Shown here piece after piece: positions 2,781-13,287 of a stretch of 13,533 nucleotides of DNA (the first letter of the stretch is position 1; each line of letters opens with the position of its first letter). The position numbers and the translations under genes are program-made. The stretch is from Oscillospiraceae bacterium (GTDB taxonomy: Bacteria > Bacillota > Clostridia > Oscillospirales > Ruminococcaceae). Below the pieces are notes generated by a model, which worked only from the letters and a program-made list of their open reading frames with translations, did no database searches and was not told where the DNA came from. Where the stretch lies: assembly GCA_017394475.1 (NCBI GenBank), contig JAFPYQ010000341.1, positions 1 through 13,533 of the forward strand. Direction: 5' to 3'.

Positions 2781-4574
2781 ATGCACAAGGAATTTTTGAT
2801 GGGCAATGCAGCCATCGGCAGAGGGGCTGTATATGCGGGACTTGATTGTATAGCCGGCTATCCGGGCACACCATCTTCTGAGGTGCTCGAAACTGTAGCA
2901 AAGGTGAATGACGGCAGTATATACGTGGAATGGTCGGTAAATGAAAAGGCAGCCCTCGAGCTGGCTGCGGGCGCATCCTACTGCGGTGCCAGGTCTATGG
3001 TGACTATGAAGCAGGTAGGGCTCAATGTGGCATCCGATCCTCTCATGTCACTTGCCTATGTGGGCGTGAAGGGCGGCATGATAATCATGGTAGCGGATGA
3101 TCCGGGGCCTATATCCTCCCAGACCGAGCAGGATACGCGGACATTTGCGGCATATTCAAAGCTGCCCTGCTTTGATCCTTCCTCCGTGGAGGAGGCTTTC
3201 TATATGGTGCGTGATGCCTTCGAGCTTTCCGAGAAGTATCACACGCCTGTTATCCTGCGCCCTACCACAAGGATATGTCATGCATACGCATCCATAGCCG
3301 TGCCCGAAAAAGAGGACTATATACATACATCCCCCGAGGGCTTTGTAAAGGACTCATCAAGATGGGTCATATTCCCGCGGCTATCCTACAAGAACCATAT
3401 CGAGATAGAAAAGCGTGACCGTGAGCTCACATCCGTGCTTTCGGAGTATAAGCGAAACAGCTTTGAAAAGGGCGATTTGAAGATCGGTATTGCATCCCAC
3501 GGCATAAGTTCTTCCTATGTAAGGGAAGTACTGAGCGGGATGAAAGAAAAGCCTTCTTTCCTGAATGTGGCAACACCCTTTCCCTTCCCCGAGCAGCTTG
3601 CGGTGGAGTTCCTGAAATGCTGTGATGAGGTATTCTGCATAGAGGAGCTTGACCCTGTCATTGAAAGAGAGCTCACCTATCTCTGCGGAAAATATCATCT
3701 TGATACCTGCATAAACGGAAAGCTCACAGGGGATATACATCCTGCGGGTGAAAATGATCCCACCTATGTAAAGAATGTACTGAACAGTATCATGGGCAAA
3801 ACAGACGTACCCGTGAAAGCTGCGGATGCTCCCGAACTTCCCGCCCGTCCCCCCGTGCTGTGTGCGGGCTGTCCCCACAGGGCGTCCTTCTATGCGGTAA
3901 AGACTGCCATGAAGGGCAGGAAAGCTGTTTTCTGCGGTGATATCGGCTGCTATACGCTCGGCAATGCACAGCCCCTTGACATGGTGGATACCTGCCTTTG
4001 CATGGGTGCGGGAGTGAATATCGCACAGGGCATAGGAAAGATAGAGCCCGATACTACCTGCTTTGCATTCGTAGGCGACAGCACATTCTTCGCATCGGCT
4101 GTGACAGGCGTCATAAATGGTGTCTATAATCAGGCAGATATGACACTTATCGTGCTTGACAATTCCACTACCGCCATGACAGGCCATCAGCCCCATCCCG
4201 GCACAGGCCGCACCATGATGGGCGAGGTCGTGGAAAAGGTGGATATCGCTGCCGTGCTCCACGGGGCAGGGGTAAAGATGGTGGAGACCGTGGATCCCCT
4301 GGACCTTGAAAAGGCAGTTGAGACCGTGAGAAGTGTCAGCGCAGAAAAGGGTGTCAAGGCAATAATATTCAAGTCCCCCTGCGCTATACTCATAAAGCCA
4401 GAAAAGCCTGTTATCATCAGCGAAAGCTGCACTCAGTGCAAAAAGTGCATAAAGAGCCTGGGGTGTCCGGGACTTGTGATAAGTCAGGGCAAGGTGGCAA
4501 TAGAAGCAGCACTGTGTACAGGCTGCGGCCTGTGTGCTCAGGTCTGTCCTTTCCACGCAATACAGAAAGGATAG
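2781..4574 (+). CDS. iorA: Indolepyruvate:ferredoxin oxidoreductase, alpha subunit
   Basis: Thiamine-diphosphate and iron-sulfur enzyme subunit. In the known IorAB complex it oxidatively decarboxylates aryl-pyruvates (from Trp, Phe, Tyr) to aryl-acetyl-CoA, reducing ferredoxin; cytoplasmic and anaerobic. The 597-residue length is normal. Order of domains: the pyrimidine-binding domain with YPGTPSSEV (27-35) and YVEWSVNEKAALE (48-60); a middle domain; the TPP-pyrophosphate domain with CAGCPH (361-366), GDIGCYTLG, and GDS (432-434) through N461 followed by the TAMTGHQPHPGTG stretch; then a C-terminal 2[4Fe-4S] ferredoxin domain with Cys 550, 553, 556, 561 and Cys 579, 582, 585, 589. The start is supported by GAGGT at 2771-2775 and the family N-terminus. 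The beta subunit gene iorB, which usually follows directly, is absent: a Nudix gene starts 3 bases later. The substrate is inferred from the family; a divergent keto-acid oxidoreductase is possible. Confidence 0.95.
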   Translation: MHKEFLMGNAAIGRGAVYAGLDCIAGYPGTPSSEVLETVAKVNDGSIYVEWSVNEKAALELAAGASYCGARSMVTMKQVGLNVASDPLMSLAYVGVKGGMIIMVADDPGPISSQTEQDTRTFAAYSKLPCFDPSSVEEAFYMVRDAFELSEKYHTPVILRPTTRICHAYASIAVPEKEDYIHTSPEGFVKDSSRWVIFPRLSYKNHIEIEKRDRELTSVLSEYKRNSFEKGDLKIGIASHGISSSYVREVLSGMKEKPSFLNVATPFPFPEQLAVEFLKCCDEVFCIEELDPVIERELTYLCGKYHLDTCINGKLTGDIHPAGENDPTYVKNVLNSIMGKTDVPVKAADAPELPARPPVLCAGCPHRASFYAVKTAMKGRKAVFCGDIGCYTLGNAQPLDMVDTCLCMGAGVNIAQGIGKIEPDTTCFAFVGDSTFFASAVTGVINGVYNQADMTLIVLDNSTTAMTGHQPHPGTGRTMMGEVVEKVDIAAVLHGAGVKMVETVDPLDLEKAVETVRSVSAEKGVKAIIFKSPCAILIKPEKPVIISESCTQCKKCIKSLGCPGLVISQGKVAIEAALCTGCGLCAQVCPFHAIQKG

Positions 4575-5074: not shown

Positions 5075-5105
5075 GCAGCTTGTGCAAATCCCCTTGCAAA
5101 ACTGC
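5075..5105. promoter_or_regulatory. Inverted repeat over the LytTR operon promoter, candidate operator
   Basis: Left arm 5075-5087 (GCAGCTTGTGCAA) and right arm 5094-5105 (TTGCAAAACTGC) are inverted copies with one mismatch and one extra base, around a 6-base centre. The same stretch also holds TGCAAA as a direct repeat 12 bases apart (5083-5088 and 5095-5100), about one helical turn. The right arm contains the putative -35 element. LytTR regulators are known to bind paired repeats near promoters and often control their own genes, so an autoregulatory site is a reasonable inference. I see no match to a known LytTR consensus that I could defend. Confidence 0.4.
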
Positions 5106-5120
5106 GGTCAATGTGATAAT
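5094..5120 (+). promoter_or_regulatory. Predicted promoter of the LytTR-DUF3021-ABC operon
   Basis: A -35-like TTGCAA (5094-5099) is followed 15 bases later by an extended -10, TG-T-GATAAT (5112-5120). The 15-base spacing is short, but the TG extension can compensate. An alternative -10, TAATAT at 5117-5122, would give a 17-base spacer. It lies between the preceding terminator and a clear ribosome binding site, where a promoter is expected. Confidence 0.5.
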
Positions 5121-5129
5121 ATCTTATAC

Positions 5130-5137
5130 AAGGGGGG
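5130..5137 (+). promoter_or_regulatory. Ribosome binding site deciding the GTG start of the LytTR gene
   Basis: AAGGGGGG ends 7 bases before GTG at 5145. The in-frame ATG at 5082 has no such site, lies upstream of the predicted promoter and overlaps the inverted repeat, so GTG 5145 is the better start. Confidence 0.8.
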
Positions 5138-5144
5138 CGATACA

Positions 5145-5585
5145 GTGAAGATATCAATAAACATAGACAGGGCACTGAATGACACGGAGATACAGATAAA
5201 CTGTCCGTCACTCACTCCCGAGACCGAAAAGCTCATCGCCGCCCTGCGCATGATGGACAGCAAAATGACCGTCATACGTGACAATGAGGCGTATATAATA
5301 GATATCACCGAGATAGCATATATAGAATCGGTGGACAGGAAGACCTTTGTATACACCGAAAAGGACTGCTATGAAACGAAGCTGAAACTGTATGAGACCG
5401 AAGAAAGGCTCTGCGGCAGCGGATTTGTACGGGTGAGCAAGTCAACTCTTGTGAATCTCAAATTCGTGCGGTCGCTCAAAGCAGAGCTTGACAGGCGCCT
5501 GCGGCTCACACTTGAAAACGGTGAACAGCTGATAGTTTCAAGGCAGTATGCAGATGAGATAAAAGTACAGCTGGGGGTGAAGTAA
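5145..5585 (+). CDS. LytTR-family DNA-binding transcriptional regulator
   Basis: A 146-residue regulator with no receiver domain. A short N-terminal beta-helix segment of about 45 residues (MKISINIDRAL...) precedes a LytTR DNA-binding domain covering about residues 48-143, with the typical features IAYIESVDRKTFVYT, GFVRVSKSTLVNL and ENGEQLIVSRQYADEI. This is the stand-alone form found in LytTR regulatory systems, where an adjacent membrane protein holds the regulator inactive (HdrR/HdrM and BrsR/BrsM of streptococci are the studied examples). The start is GTG at 5145, preceded by AAGGGGGG; an ATG 63 bases upstream is rejected for lack of a ribosome binding site. Its stop overlaps the next start by one base (TAATG). 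It probably regulates its own operon through the inverted repeat at 5075-5105, which is inference. Confidence 0.92.
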   Translation: MKISINIDRALNDTEIQINCPSLTPETEKLIAALRMMDSKMTVIRDNEAYIIDITEIAYIESVDRKTFVYTEKDCYETKLKLYETEERLCGSGFVRVSKSTLVNLKFVRSLKAELDRRLRLTLENGEQLIVSRQYADEIKVQLGVK

Positions 5586-6055
5586 TGGACAAAAGATCAA
5601 CATTGCTGGACTATCTTAAACAGATATTCTTAGGCTTCGGCATAACGACAGCCATACTTGAGATGATGGCGGTACTGTTCGGCGATAAGCTCATGGGCTA
5701 TTCCTCCATGTTCTCTCTTGGTTCACAGGGGATAAGTGCAGCCACTGCCTTTCAGTTCCTGGGTGTGATAGTCCTCATAGTGACACTGCGGTTCATCTTC
5801 ATGACGGATAGCTTTATAAAGGAACTGACGCTCACCGCAAGGATGGTGTTGTTCTTTATCGGTTCCTTTGCAGTAACAGTGGTATTTATATTCATATTCG
5901 GCTGGTTCCCCGTGAACGATCCTCTTGCATGGATGATGTTCATCGTATCCATCACGGTAAAGAGCGTGGTGAGCACGATAGTTTCATCGGCAGCGGAAAA
6001 GCAGGAGAACAGACAGCTCGAAGAAGCTCTCAGAAGGATAAAGGAGGGGCAATAA
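5585..6055 (+). CDS. DUF3021 family membrane protein, probable partner of the LytTR regulator
   Basis: A 156-residue integral membrane protein with four predicted helices: about residues 12-32 (IFLGFGITTAILEMMAVLFG), 51-72, 82-105 and 111-130. A charged cytoplasmic tail ends in EEALRRIKEGQ. The size, four-helix layout and position directly after a stand-alone LytTR gene match the DUF3021 family. In streptococcal LytTR regulatory systems the equivalent membrane protein antagonises the regulator; that this one does so is inference. Its start overlaps the LytTR stop by one base and its stop overlaps the ABC ATPase start by one base, so the three are translationally coupled. GGGGGTGA at 5573-5580 is the ribosome binding site. 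What it senses, if anything, cannot be seen. Confidence 0.87.
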   Translation: MDKRSTLLDYLKQIFLGFGITTAILEMMAVLFGDKLMGYSSMFSLGSQGISAATAFQFLGVIVLIVTLRFIFMTDSFIKELTLTARMVLFFIGSFAVTVVFIFIFGWFPVNDPLAWMMFIVSITVKSVVSTIVSSAAEKQENRQLEEALRRIKEGQ

Positions 6056-6906
6056 TGGAATTTGCGATAAATGCAGGAAATATAACAAAAACATTCGGCA
6101 ACAGAACGGTATTGGACGGTATAGACCTGAAGATCCCGAAAGGGGAGATATTCGGATTGTTAGGGCCGTCGGGAGCGGGAAAGACAACGCTCATCAAGAT
6201 ACTTACGGGGCAGCTCAGGGCAGATGGGGGCATATCCTCCATAAACGGAAAGAGCAGTACCGCCCTCACAGGTGACGATCACAGGCGCTTCGGCATCATG
6301 ATGGATGATTTCGGCATCTATGAGCGGATGAACTGCTATGAGAACCTAAAGATATTTGCCCGTATATACGGGATAGATGACAGCTGCATAAAGACAGCCC
6401 TTGAAAAGGTGGGACTGTGGAAGTCGGCAAAAACGCCTGCCAAAAAGCTATCAAAGGGCATGAAGGGCAGGCTGAGGCTTGCAAGGGCATTTATGACAGA
6501 CCCCGATATCCTGTTCCTTGATGAGCCTACAAGCGGCCTTGACCCGACTGCGGCAGACGAGATACACAAGATAATACTTTCGGATAAGGCAAAGGGAAAG
6601 ACCATATTCCTCACCACCCACACCATGACAGAGGCTGAAAAGCTCTGCGGCCATGTGGCACTGCTAAATGAAGGGAAGATAGTAGAATACGGCACTCCCG
6701 CGGAGATATGCCGCAGATACGACCACTGCAGGAAGTTCCGCATACACATGAGGGACGGCAGCGACCTGGAGCTGCCTCACACTACAGACAGTGCAGTGCA
6801 GATATCAGAGCTTATAGGCAGTGGCAGGATGGAGACCATACACACCACCGAGCCTGATCTTGAAACAGTATTCATGGAGCTTACCGGAAAGGAGCTTTCG
6901 GCATGA
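6055..6906 (+). CDS. ABC-2 exporter, ATP-binding subunit
   Basis: A 283-residue cytoplasmic ATPase that drives the permease encoded next. Walker A is GPSGAGKT (37-44), the signature is LSKGM (132-136), Walker B is DILFLDEP (151-158) with catalytic E157, the D-loop is SGLDP, and the switch His is H189 in LTTHTM. The Q-loop position reads MMDDFGIYE, with Asp84 where Gln is usual, so the ATPase is slightly divergent but otherwise complete. A C-terminal extension of about 70 residues past the nucleotide-binding domain ends in ETVFMELTGKELSA, typical of antibiotic or lantibiotic-type DrrA-like ATPases. I chose ATG 6055 because AAGGAGGGG at 6041-6049 precedes it and the family N-terminus (ITKTFGNRTVLDG) begins there. 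The open frame extends 42 codons upstream but only inside the DUF3021 gene. The cargo is unknown. Confidence 0.95.
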   Translation: MEFAINAGNITKTFGNRTVLDGIDLKIPKGEIFGLLGPSGAGKTTLIKILTGQLRADGGISSINGKSSTALTGDDHRRFGIMMDDFGIYERMNCYENLKIFARIYGIDDSCIKTALEKVGLWKSAKTPAKKLSKGMKGRLRLARAFMTDPDILFLDEPTSGLDPTAADEIHKIILSDKAKGKTIFLTTHTMTEAEKLCGHVALLNEGKIVEYGTPAEICRRYDHCRKFRIHMRDGSDLELPHTTDSAVQISELIGSGRMETIHTTEPDLETVFMELTGKELSA

Positions 6907-7595
6907 GAAACATAAAAGCCATATTTCTGAAACAACTTAGCGATACACTGAAAAACAAGATGGTACTGTTACAGTTCCTGATGTTCCCTGTGGTGGTCAT
7001 CGTGATGGAGAACAGCGTGGATCTCGAGGGGATGCCCGAACATTTCTTCGTGAAGCTGTTTGCGGTGATGTTCGTGGGGATGGCGCCCCTTACATCTATG
7101 TCTTCGATGATAGCAGAGGAAAAGGAGAAAAATACCCTGCGGGTACTGATGATGAGCAATGTAAAGCCTGCGGAATACCTTGCGGGAGTAGGCGCCTATG
7201 TATTCCTCATGTGCATGGCAGGAACAGCGGTATTTGCAGTCGTGGGCGGATATGAAGGGAAGGAACTGGCTGTGTTCATCGGTGCCATGACAGCAGGCAT
7301 ACTCCTTTCCATGATAACAGGGGCAGTCATAGGGATATGGAGCAAGGATCAGATGACAGCCACATCCATCACTTATCCGGTGATGATAGTCTTCTCATTC
7401 GTCCCCATGCTTTCCATGTTCAATGACACCATAAAGAAAGCAGCACAGATAGTATATTCCCAGCAGATAAGCGAGATAATAAACTGCATAGGCACTGCGG
7501 ATATAAAGCCTGTGAGCATAGTGGTGCTGGCAGCAGAACTTGCGGCAGTAATGATGATGTTTGCCTATGTATACAGACGCCGCGGACTTGAATGA
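6903..7595 (+). CDS. ABC-2 type exporter permease
   Basis: A 230-residue membrane subunit paired with the preceding ATPase. Six hydrophobic segments are visible at about residues 20-37, 50-70, 92-115, 122-145, 152-172 and 203-225. Between the second and third is the conserved cytoplasmic coupling stretch AEEKEKNTLRVLMMSNVKP, diagnostic of ABC-2 transporters (compare the E-x-G-T/N-x-x-x-L-x-x-S/T-P motif). The start overlaps the ATPase stop by 4 bases (ATGA), with AAAGGAG at 6888-6894. It is one permease half, so the active exporter is probably a 2+2 dimer. With a LytTR/DUF3021 pair in front, the likely role is export of a peptide, antimicrobial or envelope compound, or self-protection from one. 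That is inferred from context and the substrate is unknown. Confidence 0.93.
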   Translation: MRNIKAIFLKQLSDTLKNKMVLLQFLMFPVVVIVMENSVDLEGMPEHFFVKLFAVMFVGMAPLTSMSSMIAEEKEKNTLRVLMMSNVKPAEYLAGVGAYVFLMCMAGTAVFAVVGGYEGKELAVFIGAMTAGILLSMITGAVIGIWSKDQMTATSITYPVMIVFSFVPMLSMFNDTIKKAAQIVYSQQISEIINCIGTADIKPVSIVVLAAELAAVMMMFAYVYRRRGLE

Positions 7596-7620: not shown

Positions 7621-8958
7621 ATGGGACTTTTCAGTGAAATGGTAAAGACTCACAGTGCAGGGAAAATGACACCCGGGCAGACAGAGTCACTGCAGAAACA
7701 GAAGCTGAGGAAACTGGTGAGCTATGCCAGGGATAACAGTCCATTCTACAAAAGGCTGTATTCGGGAGTTGGGGAGGATTTTGATCTCTCCGATCTGCCC
7801 GCTGTGGATAAATCCACTATCATGGCAAATTTTGACAGCGTGCTCACAGACAGGGATATAAATATGCGGAGGATAGAGGAGTTTACCGCGGATAATGAGA
7901 ACATAGGCAGGATGATAGACGGGAAATACCTTGTTTTCAAGACCTCGGGCTCCACAGGCATCCCTGCGGTGGTGCTCTACGACAAGCGGAGCATAGATGT
8001 ATCATCTGCGGTGGCAGCCCTCAGGACATTTGCCAGGGATGAAGATCTGAAAGCCTTCATGAAGCACGGCAAAAAGACAGCAGGCGTCTTTGCGGATCAC
8101 GGTTTCTATCTTGCCTGCGGTATGTCCCGCTATATGCAGCTGAAAATGCCGCATAAAAAGACCAAGATAACGGTGGATGTGAACGCCCCGGAGGAGCAGA
8201 TAGTCAAGGAACTCAACGCTTTCAGGCCTGCCATGCTCAGCGGCTACCCGTCAAATCTGGCGCTTCTCGCGGATATAAAAGAGCTCGATATCACTCCGGA
8301 TGTGGTGATAACAGGCGGGGAACTCCTTACCGATGATATACGAAAGAAGCTGCAGGATAAATTCGGCTGCTATGTCCAGACCCATTATTCCTGCACCGAG
8401 GGCGGTGAACTGGCCTGCGAATGCAGTGAAGGTCATCTGCACATCAATGAGGATATCGTGATACTTGAACCTGTGGACAGTGAAAACAGGCCTGTGGGGT
8501 ATGGTGTGCAGTCGGATAAGGTGCTGATGACAAATCTTTCCAACTTCATACAGCCCTTTATACGCTATGAGATCACCGACAGGGTGGTGATCCATGATGA
8601 GCCCTGCAGATGTGGCAGAAGCTCCCGCTGGATAGAGATAGAGGGGCGCACGGATGATATCCTTGTTTTTGAAAACGGCGTGAAGATAGCCCCTATGTCC
8701 CTTTACAAGATACTCGAAGAGATAAAGCCCATACGCAGGTTCCAGCTGGTGCACACCGCTCCTGAAAGCCTTGAACTGCGCCTTATCTCCGATGATCCCG
8801 AAGGAGCCTTTGAACAGGCAAAGAGAGAGCTGCTCACATTCTTTCAGGAAAAGGGGCTGACAGGCATCAACATCACCCTTTCCGAAAAAATACCGCAGGC
8901 ACACAAGGTCAGCGGCAAATTCAAGCACATATACACCGACTTTAACACGGGAAAATGA
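7621..8958 (+). CDS. PaaK/CapK-type adenylate-forming enzyme (phenylacetate-CoA ligase family)
   Basis: A 445-residue cytoplasmic enzyme of the ATP-dependent acyl or aryl adenylation superfamily; relatives make acyl-AMP and then acyl-CoA. Visible motifs in order: phosphate-binding TSGSTG (108-113); SGYPSNLALLA (207-217); YSCTEGG (256-262), the adenine/substrate motif; YEITD (316-320) with D320 in the ribose-binding position; EGRTDD (341-346) with hinge R343; and a C-terminal K433 in VSGKFKHI for the adenylation lysine. Cysteines C258, C266, C268, His272/274 and C329, C331 resemble the metal-binding cluster of some PaaK-like proteins. Length fits the family (about 430-450). It lies 25 bases after the ABC permease and a terminator follows, so it ends the LytTR operon. 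The substrate is not readable: true arylacetate-CoA ligase is possible, but the sequence looks divergent, so I give no gene symbol. Confidence 0.88.
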   Translation: MGLFSEMVKTHSAGKMTPGQTESLQKQKLRKLVSYARDNSPFYKRLYSGVGEDFDLSDLPAVDKSTIMANFDSVLTDRDINMRRIEEFTADNENIGRMIDGKYLVFKTSGSTGIPAVVLYDKRSIDVSSAVAALRTFARDEDLKAFMKHGKKTAGVFADHGFYLACGMSRYMQLKMPHKKTKITVDVNAPEEQIVKELNAFRPAMLSGYPSNLALLADIKELDITPDVVITGGELLTDDIRKKLQDKFGCYVQTHYSCTEGGELACECSEGHLHINEDIVILEPVDSENRPVGYGVQSDKVLMTNLSNFIQPFIRYEITDRVVIHDEPCRCGRSSRWIEIEGRTDDILVFENGVKIAPMSLYKILEEIKPIRRFQLVHTAPESLELRLISDDPEGAFEQAKRELLTFFQEKGLTGINITLSEKIPQAHKVSGKFKHIYTDFNTGK

Positions 8959-9111: not shown

Positions 9112-12100
9112 TTGAAGAAGATCGCAGATCTCATAGTAGAGAAAAGGATCCTGATATTGATACTCGTTCTTATCATATCAGCAGCTTTTGCTGTCATGAT
9201 ACCGCAGGTAGAGATCAACAGGGACATGACAAAATATCTGCCCGATGATTCATCTATGAAGATCGGTATGGATATCATGGAAAGGGAATTTCCCGCCGAG
9301 GAAGAGAACTATACCATAAGAGTGATGTTCAAGGATCTTACCGATGATCAGAAGACCGAGACAAGGGATAGGCTCTTCTATGTAAAATTCGTTACCGATG
9401 TGGAGTATGATGCGGATAGTGACGAATACGAAAAGAACGGCTACACGAAATTCGTGCTCCATACGGATTATGATTACAACAGTCCCCAGGAGCATTCCAT
9501 AGAAAAAACACTGGCGAAGGATTTTGCCTTCAATGACATGAAGTATATGAACGACGGGGACAACACTCCCGGACTCCCGCTGCCGGTGGCCATCTTTGCG
9601 GTATCACTGCTGACTATCATACTTATCATCATGAGCCCATCGTGGATAGAGCCTTTCCTGTTCCTGTTCACCATAGGCGCTGCGATACTCATAAATCTCG
9701 GAACGAATGTCTTCCTGGGCTCCATTTCCGAAAAGACCCTTGCAGTGGCAGCCATACTGCAGCTCATCCTCTCCCTTGACTACTCTGTCATACTCATGAG
9801 CCGCTATCGTCAGGAACTGGTCAGGAACGATGACCCCAAGCGTGCGATGAAAGAGGCATGGGTGGGTGCATTCTCATCTATTTCGAGCAGCTCCCTCACT
9901 ACAGTGGTGGGTCTGCTGGCACTGATATTCATGAGCTTCAAGATAGGCTTCGATATGGGTGTCGTACTGGCAAAGGGCGTGTTCATCAGCGTTATCTGCA
10001 CATTCCTCATGCTGCCCGGGCTTATCCTCATATTCTCCGGAGCAGTGGAAAAAACGAAGAAGCCCTCTCCGAAGGTGCCTACAGACGGCCTTGCATCCCT
10101 GTGCTTCAAGATAAAACTGCCCCTTACCCTCCTTTTTGTGGCACTTTTTGCAGGTGCATACTTCATGCAGAAGCAGACAGATATCAGCTACTCCATGAAA
10201 AACTACGACCCCATCGCCGAGGTGTTCCCGCAGAACAGCACTGTTGTAATGCTGTATGAGAACAAGGACGAAGAAAAGGTGGATGAGATAGCCGAACTTC
10301 TAGAAGTGCGCGATGATGTGGACAGTGCGGTGAATTACTCCAATACCATCGCAAAGAAGTACACAGCCGCAGAAATGCCCGATGCCATAAAGGAACTTTC
10401 CGGGACTATGGGCGGCAAGGGCAGCAGCATCGAACCCGATGAAAAGTTGTTCAATATGCTGTATTACAAGTATTACGGCGGCAAAACGGGAAAGATGACC
10501 GCAGAGGAATTCCTGAACTACGTTTATGACGATGTGCTCTCCAACGGCTCATTCAGCTCCTATATGGACAGCGATATAAAAGCCAATGCAGAGTTCATAA
10601 AAAAACTCACCGATACCGAAGCCCTTTCAAGACCCATGACCGCAGAGGAGCTTTCAGGATTTTTCGGCATGGAAAGATCGGACTGTGAACAGCTGTTCCT
10701 TTACTATTTCATAAAGAATTCGGGTGCGGGAACGGAAAAAATGACTATCGGTGAATTTGCCGATTTCATCCTTGAAGACCTTGCAAAGGATGAGACCTAT
10801 TCAAAAATGCTCGACAGTGAGACCATAGCACAGGTCAAGACCCTTAAGAGCTTTACCGATAAGGACACCGTGGAAAAGGAGATGACGGCATCGGAGATCG
10901 CTGATGCTCTTGGTATGGACGAGCACGCAGCAAAGCTCCTTATGGTATATCGCCTTGCAGAGCAGAAGGACTACAAGCCCGGCACTATGACCATAGATGA
11001 ACTCATCCGCTTCATAAAACAGGATGTGGCAGCAGACAAGGACTTTTCCGTATTTTTTGACAAGGATGCTCTTTCTCAGATAGATAAGCTGGAGAGCTAC
11101 ACGAATACGGCCAATATCACACAGCAGCGCAGTGCGGGCGAGCTTGCACGGATGCTGGGCATGGATGAACAGATCGTAAAGCAGCTTATACGCCTTGATG
11201 CAAGAGGACTGGATCTTGACAACAAGAAGATGACACTGGTGCAGTTCACATCATTCCTTGATACGATGATGCAGGATCCCACCTTCGGGAGCGGATTTGA
11301 TGAGACGACCCGCGCCAATATCCGCAGCATGAAGGCCATAATAGACACCGCAGCATCAAAGAGGGCACTCTCTCAGGCAGAGCTGGCGCAGATCATGCAG
11401 ATGGATGAAAATTCCGTCTCCCAGATGCTCATGGGCTATTCCATACAGACAGGCGGCGACCCTGCTAAGATAACCCTTACCGATTTTGTGGACTATATCG
11501 TCAATTACATCCTTTCCGACCCGGGTTACGCACAGCGTTTCAGTGCACAGAACAGCGCCGAGAATGTGATGATGATGCAGCAGCTTTGCCATGCAGCCGT
11601 AGCTGACACCCAGCTCGGCATGAACGAGTTCTCACAGATGTTCGGCATGGACAAGGAACAGGTCAGACTGATGTTCACGCTGTATTTCGGCGATGCGGAA
11701 AAAAAGATGTCCCTTTATGATCTTGTGGACTATCTTAATTCCTATGTGCTCAAAGACCCCATGCTCTCATCCGGGATAGACCGCTCTCTTTCCGGGGAAC
11801 TGAGTTCTCTCAAAAAGATGATGGATACGGCAGTGAGCAAGAAGAAGCTGAGCTATACCGATTCCGCTGCCATGTTCGGCATGGATGCAGACACCATGAA
11901 GCTGCTTTATGTATTGAAGGAGCAGAGGAAGGCAGGCACATCGGAGGACGGAGAGAAAGAAGAAAACAAGATATCACTATCGGAGCTGGCGGAGTTCCTG
12001 AGCAGCAGCAAGGACAAGCTTGAAGGCATGGCTGATGAGGATATGCTCTCAAAGGTGGATACCCTCAAAGACATCATGGATGCTGCACGGGCAGAAGAAA

Positions 12101-13287
12101 AGCTGAGTGAAAGGCGCCTTTCGGAGATAACAGGCATAGATGCCGGAAATGCAAGAAAGCTGTTTTTCCTCTATACCTACAAAAAGGGCGATACCAGCGG
12201 CTGGCAGCTCTCACCCAAGCGTTTCGTGGATTTCCTTGCGGATAATGTGCTTTCCGATGAGGAACTCTCCAAAAATATATCCGAAAGTGACAGCAGCAGG
12301 CTCACAAGTGCATCAAAAATTATGGATGCAGTTATATCAGGAAAGCCCTGTACAAGTGATCAGATGGCAGACCTGTTTGACGGTATGTCCGAGAAGATGG
12401 ACAGATCGATGATATCTCTGCTGTATCTGTACCATGATGCAAATATCTCACCGGATACCACACAGCGTATGTCCGTTGAAGAGCTGATGGTCTACCTCAA
12501 CGATAACCTGGTCTATGACAGTACGTTCTCAGCGGTACTCACTGCGGATATGACATCGGATATAAAGGAAAGCGCCGACAAGCTGAAGGAAGGCATCAGT
12601 CAGCTCAAGGGCGAGAACTATTCAAGGATGATACTTTCTGTTTCTGTCCCCGACGAGGGCAAACAGACAGATGAATTCTACAGCTTCCTTGACCGCAAAT
12701 GCAGCGAGCTGAACGGCAGCTACCACCTCATAGGTGCATCTGCCATGAATTATGAGATGGGGCAGACCTTTGAGGATGAATATCTGTTCATAACCCTCCT
12801 CACCGCTGCGGCAATATTCGTAGTAGTGCTCATCACCTTCCGCTCCCTGACAGTCCCGCTGATACTGGTACTTCTTGTCCAGTGCGGCGTGTTCATCACA
12901 GTCACCGTGGTAGGTCTGCAGGGATACAGCATCTACTTCATAGCTCTTGTTATAGTGCAGTGCATACTCATGGGCGCTATGATCGACTATGGCATACTGT
13001 TCAGCAATTACTACCGTGAATCAAGGAAGAAATACTTCCGCGAGGACTCGCTGAAACTGGCGTATGCAGGTTCTATACACACTATCCTCACCTCGGGCGT
13101 TATCATAGTGGTGGTCACCGCCATACTCGGCCACAGCTTCGGGGAGCCCACGGTAGAACAGATCTGCCGCACTATCTCCATCGGCGCTGCAAGTGCGCTG
13201 ATACTCATAGTGTTCATCCTTCCCGGCATACTTTCCTGCCTTGACAGGATAATGGGCGGAAGGGATAAGATAGAAGAGATAGGCTGA
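9112..13287 (+). CDS. Giant MMPL/RND-family transporter with tandem repeats in its extracytoplasmic loop
   Basis: A 1391-residue polytopic membrane protein, far longer than a usual Gram-positive MMPL protein (about 700-1050). Helix 1 is about residues 12-32, then an extracytoplasmic loop of about 125 residues, helices 2-6 (about 158-310) and helix 7 (about 335-353). A loop of about 870 residues follows, then helices 8-12 (about 1225-1385). Each half has the family Asp-Tyr pair, D223-Y224 in LSLDYSVILMSRYR and D1292-Y1293 in AMIDYGILFSNYYR, equivalent to the proton-relay residues of mycobacterial MmpL3, so a proton-driven exporter is likely. The large loop starts with a porter-like segment (STVVMLYENKDEEKVDEIAE) and ends with another (YSRMILSVSVPDEGK). 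Between them, residues 461-1168 are tandem repeats. Start TTG with AAGGGGTG. It stands alone between its own promoter and terminator. Substrate unknown; lipids or surface molecules are usual for the family. Confidence 0.94.
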   Translation: MKKIADLIVEKRILILILVLIISAAFAVMIPQVEINRDMTKYLPDDSSMKIGMDIMEREFPAEEENYTIRVMFKDLTDDQKTETRDRLFYVKFVTDVEYDADSDEYEKNGYTKFVLHTDYDYNSPQEHSIEKTLAKDFAFNDMKYMNDGDNTPGLPLPVAIFAVSLLTIILIIMSPSWIEPFLFLFTIGAAILINLGTNVFLGSISEKTLAVAAILQLILSLDYSVILMSRYRQELVRNDDPKRAMKEAWVGAFSSISSSSLTTVVGLLALIFMSFKIGFDMGVVLAKGVFISVICTFLMLPGLILIFSGAVEKTKKPSPKVPTDGLASLCFKIKLPLTLLFVALFAGAYFMQKQTDISYSMKNYDPIAEVFPQNSTVVMLYENKDEEKVDEIAELLEVRDDVDSAVNYSNTIAKKYTAAEMPDAIKELSGTMGGKGSSIEPDEKLFNMLYYKYYGGKTGKMTAEEFLNYVYDDVLSNGSFSSYMDSDIKANAEFIKKLTDTEALSRPMTAEELSGFFGMERSDCEQLFLYYFIKNSGAGTEKMTIGEFADFILEDLAKDETYSKMLDSETIAQVKTLKSFTDKDTVEKEMTASEIADALGMDEHAAKLLMVYRLAEQKDYKPGTMTIDELIRFIKQDVAADKDFSVFFDKDALSQIDKLESYTNTANITQQRSAGELARMLGMDEQIVKQLIRLDARGLDLDNKKMTLVQFTSFLDTMMQDPTFGSGFDETTRANIRSMKAIIDTAASKRALSQAELAQIMQMDENSVSQMLMGYSIQTGGDPAKITLTDFVDYIVNYILSDPGYAQRFSAQNSAENVMMMQQLCHAAVADTQLGMNEFSQMFGMDKEQVRLMFTLYFGDAEKKMSLYDLVDYLNSYVLKDPMLSSGIDRSLSGELSSLKKMMDTAVSKKKLSYTDSAAMFGMDADTMKLLYVLKEQRKAGTSEDGEKEENKISLSELAEFLSSSKDKLEGMADEDMLSKVDTLKDIMDAARAEEKLSERRLSEITGIDAGNARKLFFLYTYKKGDTSGWQLSPKRFVDFLADNVLSDEELSKNISESDSSRLTSASKIMDAVISGKPCTSDQMADLFDGMSEKMDRSMISLLYLYHDANISPDTTQRMSVEELMVYLNDNLVYDSTFSAVLTADMTSDIKESADKLKEGISQLKGENYSRMILSVSVPDEGKQTDEFYSFLDRKCSELNGSYHLIGASAMNYEMGQTFEDEYLFITLLTAAAIFVVVLITFRSLTVPLILVLLVQCGVFITVTVVGLQGYSIYFIALVIVQCILMGAMIDYGILFSNYYRESRKKYFREDSLKLAYAGSIHTILTSGVIIVVVTAILGHSFGEPTVEQICRTISIGAASALILIVFILPGILSCLDRIMGGRDKIEEIG
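10492..12615 (+). repeat. Array of ~80-residue protein repeats (8 full, 1 partial at the end) inside the MMPL gene
   Basis: Protein-level tandem repeats, too diverged to stand out in the DNA. Unit starts by residue (base): 461 (10492), 543 (10738), 625 (10984), 706 (11227), 786 (11467), 865 (11704), 953 (11968), 1032 (12205), 1119 (12466, first half only, to 1168). Unit lengths are 82, 82, 81, 80, 79, 88, 79, 87. Each opens with [KTQR]-[MIL]-[TS]-x3-[FL]-x2-[FYV]-[LIV], then an acidic helix, a region like L-x-S-F-T-D, a second [TS]-x2-E-[LI] helix cap, and GMD- or GMD-like residues before an [L/M]-[F/L/M]-x-x-Y helix. A half unit also precedes the array (about 443-460, DEKLFNMLYYKYYGG). Units look all-helical. 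I know no named domain for them. Confidence 0.85.

What the first reader, a model, noticed from the sequence alone, without database searches (positions are those of the whole stretch)
10492..12615. Eight-plus tandem ~80-residue repeats inserted in the porter loop of an MMPL transporter
Ordinary MMPL/RND proteins have one compact porter domain in each extracytoplasmic loop. Here the second loop is about 870 residues, and most of it (461-1168) is a diverged array with a regular beat of 79-88 residues. Each unit has a [MIL]-[TS]-x3-[FL] opening and a GMD-type motif before its last helix. The array interrupts a porter domain: strand-like segments (STVVMLYENK before, YSRMILSVSVPD after) flank it. 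A long helical stalk on the outer face of a Gram-positive cell could reach through the wall, bind cargo or dock a partner. The repeats are visible; the role is inference. I recall similar long MMPL proteins in gut Clostridia but no described function or named domain.
Basis: partly seen in the sequence, partly recalled or inferred. Interest (0 to 1): 0.78.

Follow-up and report, generated by a model that had tools for sequence, protein, structure and literature searches.

The report
Membrane exporter with expandable outer arm
A bacterial membrane export pump of a kind found in gut bacteria carries nine tandem copies of an 80-residue block in its outer loop, where its plainer relatives carry one copy or none and its close relatives from one to thirteen; the stack is predicted to be a helical arm of adjustable length outside the membrane that likely helps move fatty cargo through the cell wall.

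Summary
The MMPL/RND protein at 9112-13287 (+) has nine tandem ~80-residue units (residues 421-1168, nt 10372-12615) inside porter loop 2. Held-out units score 20-64 bits against at most 10.5 for shuffles. No Pfam family covers the unit. All 183 proteins held (the window's included) carry 1 to 13 units, always in loop 2; length tracks copy number (r 0.986). End units are fixed and the middle grows. Copy number is uniform in the five genera that could be compared (16 genomes) but changed at least 55 times on the core tree. Of 29 ordinary MMPLs of relatives, 19 have one unit-like segment at the same place and 10 have none, so the array most simply is one element multiplied. AlphaFold2 gives repeated short-helix units between porter halves and an MmpL4-like RND core; overall array shape is not settled (pTM 0.5). 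Best reading: an exporter with a length-variable extracytoplasmic arm, analogous to, but different in fold from, the MmpL4/5/10 coiled-coil extension. Cargo and function are inferred. New variant of a known kind.

The parts
9112..13287 (+). MMPL/RND transporter, 1391 aa, TTG start
   Evidence: ORF; PF03176 E 9.4e-36, two stretches; only PF03176 gene found in the genome, 72% complete
9112..10170 (+). N-terminal half of core: TM1, porter loop 1, TM2-TM7 (residues 1-353)
   Evidence: PF03176 at 160-312; Asp-Tyr at 223-224 seen in sequence; TM order by homology to the full-length model of P0088
10171..10371 (+). first half of porter domain 2 (beta-alpha-beta), residues 354-420
   Evidence: model strands 23-30 and 50-54; aligns to MmpL4 porter
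10372..10635 (+). array unit 1 (residues 421-508), terminal type
10636..10881 (+). array unit 2 (residues 509-590)
10882..11127 (+). array unit 3 (residues 591-672)
11128..11370 (+). array unit 4 (residues 673-753)
11371..11616 (+). array unit 5 (residues 754-835)
11617..11850 (+). array unit 6 (residues 836-913)
11851..12105 (+). array unit 7 (residues 914-998)
12106..12351 (+). array unit 8 (residues 999-1080)
12352..12615 (+). array unit 9 (residues 1081-1168), terminal type; the last-unit type scores highest against the single segment of ordinary MMPLs
12616..12783 (+). second half of porter domain 2 (beta-alpha-beta), residues 1169-1224
   Evidence: model strands 817-824 and 851-854
12784..13284 (+). 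C-terminal TM bundle (residues 1225-1391) with the second Asp-Tyr pair (1294-1295)
   Evidence: PF03176 match at 12724-13254; Asp-Tyr seen in sequence and invariant in A3

Best explanation
This is an MMPL/RND membrane exporter in which an 80-residue element, single or absent in ordinary relatives, is present nine times in tandem inside porter domain 2, predicted to form a long extracytoplasmic helical arm that likely carries or hands on an amphiphilic cargo away from the membrane through the Gram-positive wall. Shown: the array, its place in loop 2, the copy-number ladder in relatives, fixed end units with growth in the middle, purifying selection, and one copy at the same place in 19 of 29 ordinary MMPLs. 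Predicted: units of about five mostly short helices between the halves of a porter domain, on a core of MmpL4/MmpL3 type. Inferred: proton-driven transport (both Asp-Tyr pairs are kept), an amphiphile or lipid as cargo, and the arm as its path or hand-over site, with unit number setting the reach. The shape of the whole arm (stiff solenoid or jointed chain) and any trimer are not settled.
Against: pTM is 0.50 and 0.51, so the overall shape is not supported; no PAE or coordinates were available and no complex was modelled. No substrate evidence in the window; neighbours are variable, and a FarR-like divergent TetR was confirmed in only 4 of 24 loci, not in the window. Such cells have no outer membrane, so a conduit is less needed than in mycobacteria; the MmpL4 channel is itself predicted to be very narrow (PMC12803245). 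The array is acidic (-45 net in the window, median -6.7 per unit), which does not by itself suggest a greasy lumen. First-unit profiles do not match the segment of ordinary MMPLs (15.7 and 16.0, no better than controls), and only 2 of those 29 proteins (L031, L032) reach E 0.01 with the unit profile singly. The array evolves faster than the core (dN 1.5-2 times in 18 of 21 pairs). Of 19 same-genus genomes, 15 have only a shorter MMPL and 4 no match, so the long form is dispensable at genus level.
Confidence: 0.5

Rival explanations
1. The array is a string of cargo-binding modules: each unit binds an amphiphile or peptide, and more units mean more capture, with no conduit or reach.
For: Units recur as similar helix sets in the model; units within an array diverge to about 22% identity, which would fit diversified binding; middle units turn over most.
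Against: No known ligand-binding domain matches the unit; pockets were not examined; copy number held constant in five genera favours a set length over a simple dose.
Confidence: 0.2
2. The array is an assembly or docking arm: it drives oligomerisation or anchors the transporter to wall polymers or a secreted partner.
For: The MmpL10 extension drives trimer formation (PMC12183618). The shorter MMPL genes of two relatives overlap a gene for a secreted-looking protein with weak coiled-coil-type Pfam hits, 2 of 2 such loci looked at (L098, L099).
Against: Reading two ORFs on each side of 24 array-bearing loci showed no constant partner (no systematic clustering was done). No wall-binding domain matched the window protein.
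Confidence: 0.2
3. The array is a neutral or slippage-driven expansion with no specific role.
For: Copy number changed at least 55 times on the core tree; P0026 units 8 and 9 are 99% identical; patchy presence (21 of 398 genomes of one family).
Against: One copy number in each of five genera (16 genomes), array dN/dS well below 1, fixed end units.
Confidence: 0.07
4. The array is a fast-evolving surface decoy or phage/antagonist-facing feature whose turnover reflects escape.
For: Extracytoplasmic place by topology; array dN above core dN in 20 of 21 within-genus pairs.
Against: No phage link was tested; dN/dS is far below 1 in the usable pairs; the faster rate may just be relaxed surface evolution.
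Confidence: 0.03

Closest known systems
Mycobacterial MmpL4/MmpL5/MmpL10 with coiled-coil domain
   Different: There it is one 196-residue insertion forming an antiparallel coiled coil in MmpL5; here it is 1-13 repeated units of about 80 residues with about five mostly short helices each. No MmpS partner among the window's other ten ORFs. Residue-level equivalence of the insertion point was not tested.
Staphylococcus aureus FarE with divergent TetR regulator FarR
   Same: Firmicute MmpL-type RND pump (passages read, PMC10019231); 4 of 24 array-bearing loci have a divergent TetR gene
   Different: The window has no TetR neighbour. FarE confers resistance to linoleic acid; the substrate here is unknown. 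The FarE sequence was not compared here.
MmpL3, HpnN and other PF03176 proteins
   Same: Two-fold RND core with two porter loops and Asp-Tyr pairs
   Different: No multi-unit array; of 29 ordinary MMPLs from the window's relatives, 19 have one unit-like segment and 10 none

Membership tests
MMPL/RND (PF03176) | PF03176 in both halves above curated cut-off | tested here: met
   123.8 bits against 20.5, two stretches
MMPL/RND (PF03176) | RND fold with 12 TM helices and two porter loops | tested here: met
MMPL/RND (PF03176) | Asp-Tyr proton relay in TM4 and TM10 (feature recalled) | tested here: met
   D223-Y224 and D1294-Y1295 in the window sequence; both pairs invariant in the 34 rows of A3
MmpL with coiled-coil domain | helical insertion in periplasmic domain 2 | tested here: met
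   array lies between the beta-alpha-beta halves of loop 2; exact site not tested
MmpL with coiled-coil domain | long antiparallel two-helix coiled coil | tested here: not met
   model shows repeated short helices, about five per unit
MmpL with coiled-coil domain | MmpS operon partner | tested here: not met
   none among the ten other window ORFs of 90 aa or more scanned with Pfam; shorter genes not examined; contig ends 246 nt after the gene
MmpL with coiled-coil domain | trimer with helical tube | not testable with these tools
   no complex prediction available
FarE/FarR-like fatty-acid pump | divergent TetR regulator | tested here: not met
   absent next to the window gene; Pfam-confirmed in 4 of 24 array-bearing loci
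FarE/FarR-like fatty-acid pump | fatty-acid efflux | not testable with these tools
   needs an assay
known repeat domain | unit matches a curated Pfam family | tested here: not met
   none of the 9 units gave a match better than E 0.017; whole-protein hits inside the array were below cut-off

The most novel reading that the evidence does not exclude
A single polypeptide that does the work of a multi-part efflux machine in a Gram-positive cell: three copies assemble so that their arrays form a wall-spanning helical conduit, and evolution tunes its length to the wall by adding or removing 80-residue units in the middle, between fixed base and cap units.
Probability: 0.15. Interest if true: 0.85.

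Novelty: new variant of a known kind. Interest (0 to 1): 0.6.

Why it matters
RND pumps in Gram-positive bacteria are little understood, and how their cargo leaves the outer leaflet and crosses the wall is open. A family with a natural ladder of 1-13 units on a conserved core, with plainer cousins that have one or none, offers a ready experiment: compare reach, oligomer state and export against unit number. It also shows a single porter-domain element turned into a tandem array with fixed ends and a growing middle.

Tried and rejected
Chance or composition artefact: rejected (0 units called in 500 shuffled arrays, 2 in 183 reversed proteins).

First version of the origin claim: I had taken all 29 ordinary MMPLs to carry one unit; a row-by-row count shows 19 with the segment and 10 without, and the text was mended.

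Misbinned contig: rejected. The window's purA protein is 84-92% identical to the full-length matches in 14 of 18 same-genus genomes searched; 2 more gave partial matches and 2 none. alaS-purA order was seen in 1 of 6 congener loci fetched (L100); the rest of the window was not next to purA in any of the 6.

Conserved partner gene: none seen in 24 loci by reading up to two ORFs on each side where the locus reached; only some neighbours were scanned with Pfam. L004, a 25th locus, holds a truncated gene and was left out. The L107 neighbour that looked like TetR matched no Pfam family.

The genome-contig scan returned only two loci. Literature: searches for MMPL with repeats, extracellular or periplasmic loops, Firmicutes, Clostridia, Lachnospiraceae, coiled coil, YdfJ listed no paper whose title or abstract start shows this array; I opened none of the papers that those six searches listed, and the library lacks most subscription papers.

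Rows dropped: P0018 (truncated core) from the tree. L116 is a very long branch with a doubtful gene start, kept in the tree. P0175 is 1369 aa with five units and a long tail after the array, not explained. Unit counts vary by one with the threshold in a few proteins (differ for L090, L111, L113, L115; one search gives 1-14), so single-copy differences between proteins are soft. In many within-genus pairs dS is saturated (over 0.6 of synonymous sites differ), so only low-dS pairs are quoted.

Full report
What is there. The window's last gene (9112-13287, +, 1391 aa, TTG start) is an MMPL/RND transporter: PF03176 matches both halves, and NCBIfam gives generic RND subfamily matches far below their cut-offs. 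It is the only PF03176 gene found in this 72%-complete genome. Porter loop 2 spans residues 354-1224 and holds a tandem array.

The array is real. Lag-82 autocorrelation stands far above 200 shuffles, and each unit is recognised by a profile of the others at 19.7-63.8 bits against at most 10.5 for shuffles. In the best register a unit is B (helix-GMD-helix) plus A (M-[TS]-x3-F and further helices), nine units from residue 421 to 1168. Window units are only 22% identical on average.

A family-wide copy-number ladder. A profile of the unit, refined on relatives, finds units in all 183 proteins held (the window's own included), from 1 to 13 per protein, the first always starting at residue 369-452, that is in loop 2. 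Protein length rises by about 78 residues per unit (r 0.986). Controls: no unit in 500 shuffled arrays and 2 in 183 reversed proteins. The proteins are the top listed rows of two searches seeded with array-bearing queries, so this describes the family and is not a census. Across 391 genomes of the class, the narrow window-unit profile matched 9, with multi-unit arrays in 3 including the window's; in one family it matched 21 of 398.

How it grows. Window unit i best matches unit i in three of the six nine-unit relatives compared and in 7-8 of 9 units in the other three; shorter arrays correspond to the two ends of the nine-unit array, so the middle is what changes. P0026 has two neighbouring units that are 99% identical, a likely recent duplication (an assembly artefact was not excluded). 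On a tree of the core with the array removed, copy number needs at least 55 changes, against a shuffled mean of 123.8 (205 rows, FastTree, 57 of 201 inner branches with support under 80). Yet in five genera with two or more array-bearing genomes each genus has one copy number (9, 5, 5, 7, 6; 16 genomes), and array dN/dS is low in the pairs with usable dS. The array evolves faster than the core (dN 1.5-2 times in 18 of 21 pairs) but is constrained.

Where it came from. I took 29 ordinary MMPLs of the window's relatives (the loci L006-L034, 14 of them from the window's own genus). As one profile they match the unit at one place in loop 2: hhalign 40.7 with last units and 35.4 with middle units, against maxima of 18.1 and 14.4 in 40 column shuffles. 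Row by row, 19 of 29, all 14 congeners among them, have this single segment, and 10 of 29 lack it altogether; the 19 score 45.3 and 38.3, the 10 score 10.1 and 12.8. Singly the match is weak: only L031 and L032 reach E 0.01, and first-unit profiles do not match (16.0). So the array most simply is a tandem multiplication of one element that sits, or is absent, at the same place in ordinary MMPLs. Direction of change was not rooted.

Function. Both Asp-Tyr pairs are kept in the window and invariant in the 34 rows of A3, so the transporter is probably active. MmpL5's loop-2 coiled coil is required for efflux and is modelled as a 13 nm tube (PMC12501195, abstract and section 6 read); MmpL10's drives trimerisation (PMC12183618, abstract and section 20 read); in the MmpL4 hexamer the extension is tilted and its predicted channel narrow (PMC12803245, abstract and section 10 read). 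The present array is analogous in position but not in fold. In S. aureus the MmpL-type pump FarE, with divergent TetR regulator FarR, confers resistance to linoleic acid (PMC10019231, passages read; abstract starts); 4 of 24 array-bearing loci have a Pfam-confirmed divergent TetR gene, the window does not. I therefore favour an amphiphile exporter with an arm whose unit number sets its reach; this is inference.

Limits. No complex, coordinates, PAE or ligand data; no named culturable host identified; habitat and Gram-positive wall inferred from names of relatives; insertion-point equivalence with MmpL not tested at residue level (one search aligned only the stretch after the array); the long form was not found in 19 same-genus genomes, so gain or loss cannot be told apart.

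Noticed in passing
window 5082-7595: LytTR regulator, DUF3021-like membrane protein (below cut-off), ABC ATPase and ABC-2 permease in a row, likely one operon.
   Followed up: partly
window 7621-8958: AMP-binding/phenylacetate-CoA-ligase-like gene (weak PF00501, below cut-off) 153 nt upstream of the transporter on the same strand.
   Followed up: partly
window 2781-4574: Indolepyruvate:ferredoxin oxidoreductase alpha-like gene (POR_N, TPP, Fer4) followed by a NUDIX gene rather than the usual beta subunit (recalled expectation).
   Followed up: no
L098 4908-11032 and L099 6263-10694: In relatives, the shorter MMPL gene overlaps by a few bases a downstream gene for a large secreted-looking protein (1221 and 711 aa) with weak coiled-coil-type hits: a possible two-part export system.
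   Followed up: partly
L003 5397-7991: A Cthe_2159 carbohydrate-binding protein gene starts 11 nt after the nine-unit MMPL gene.
   Followed up: no
P0026 units 8 and 9: Two adjacent units 99% identical, pointing to a recent tandem duplication or an assembly artefact.
   Followed up: no
L116; P0175: L116: array seems to start at residue 131 of the called ORF and the row is a very long tree branch, so its start or frame is likely off. P0175: five units but 1369 aa, with about 500 residues after the array.
   Followed up: no
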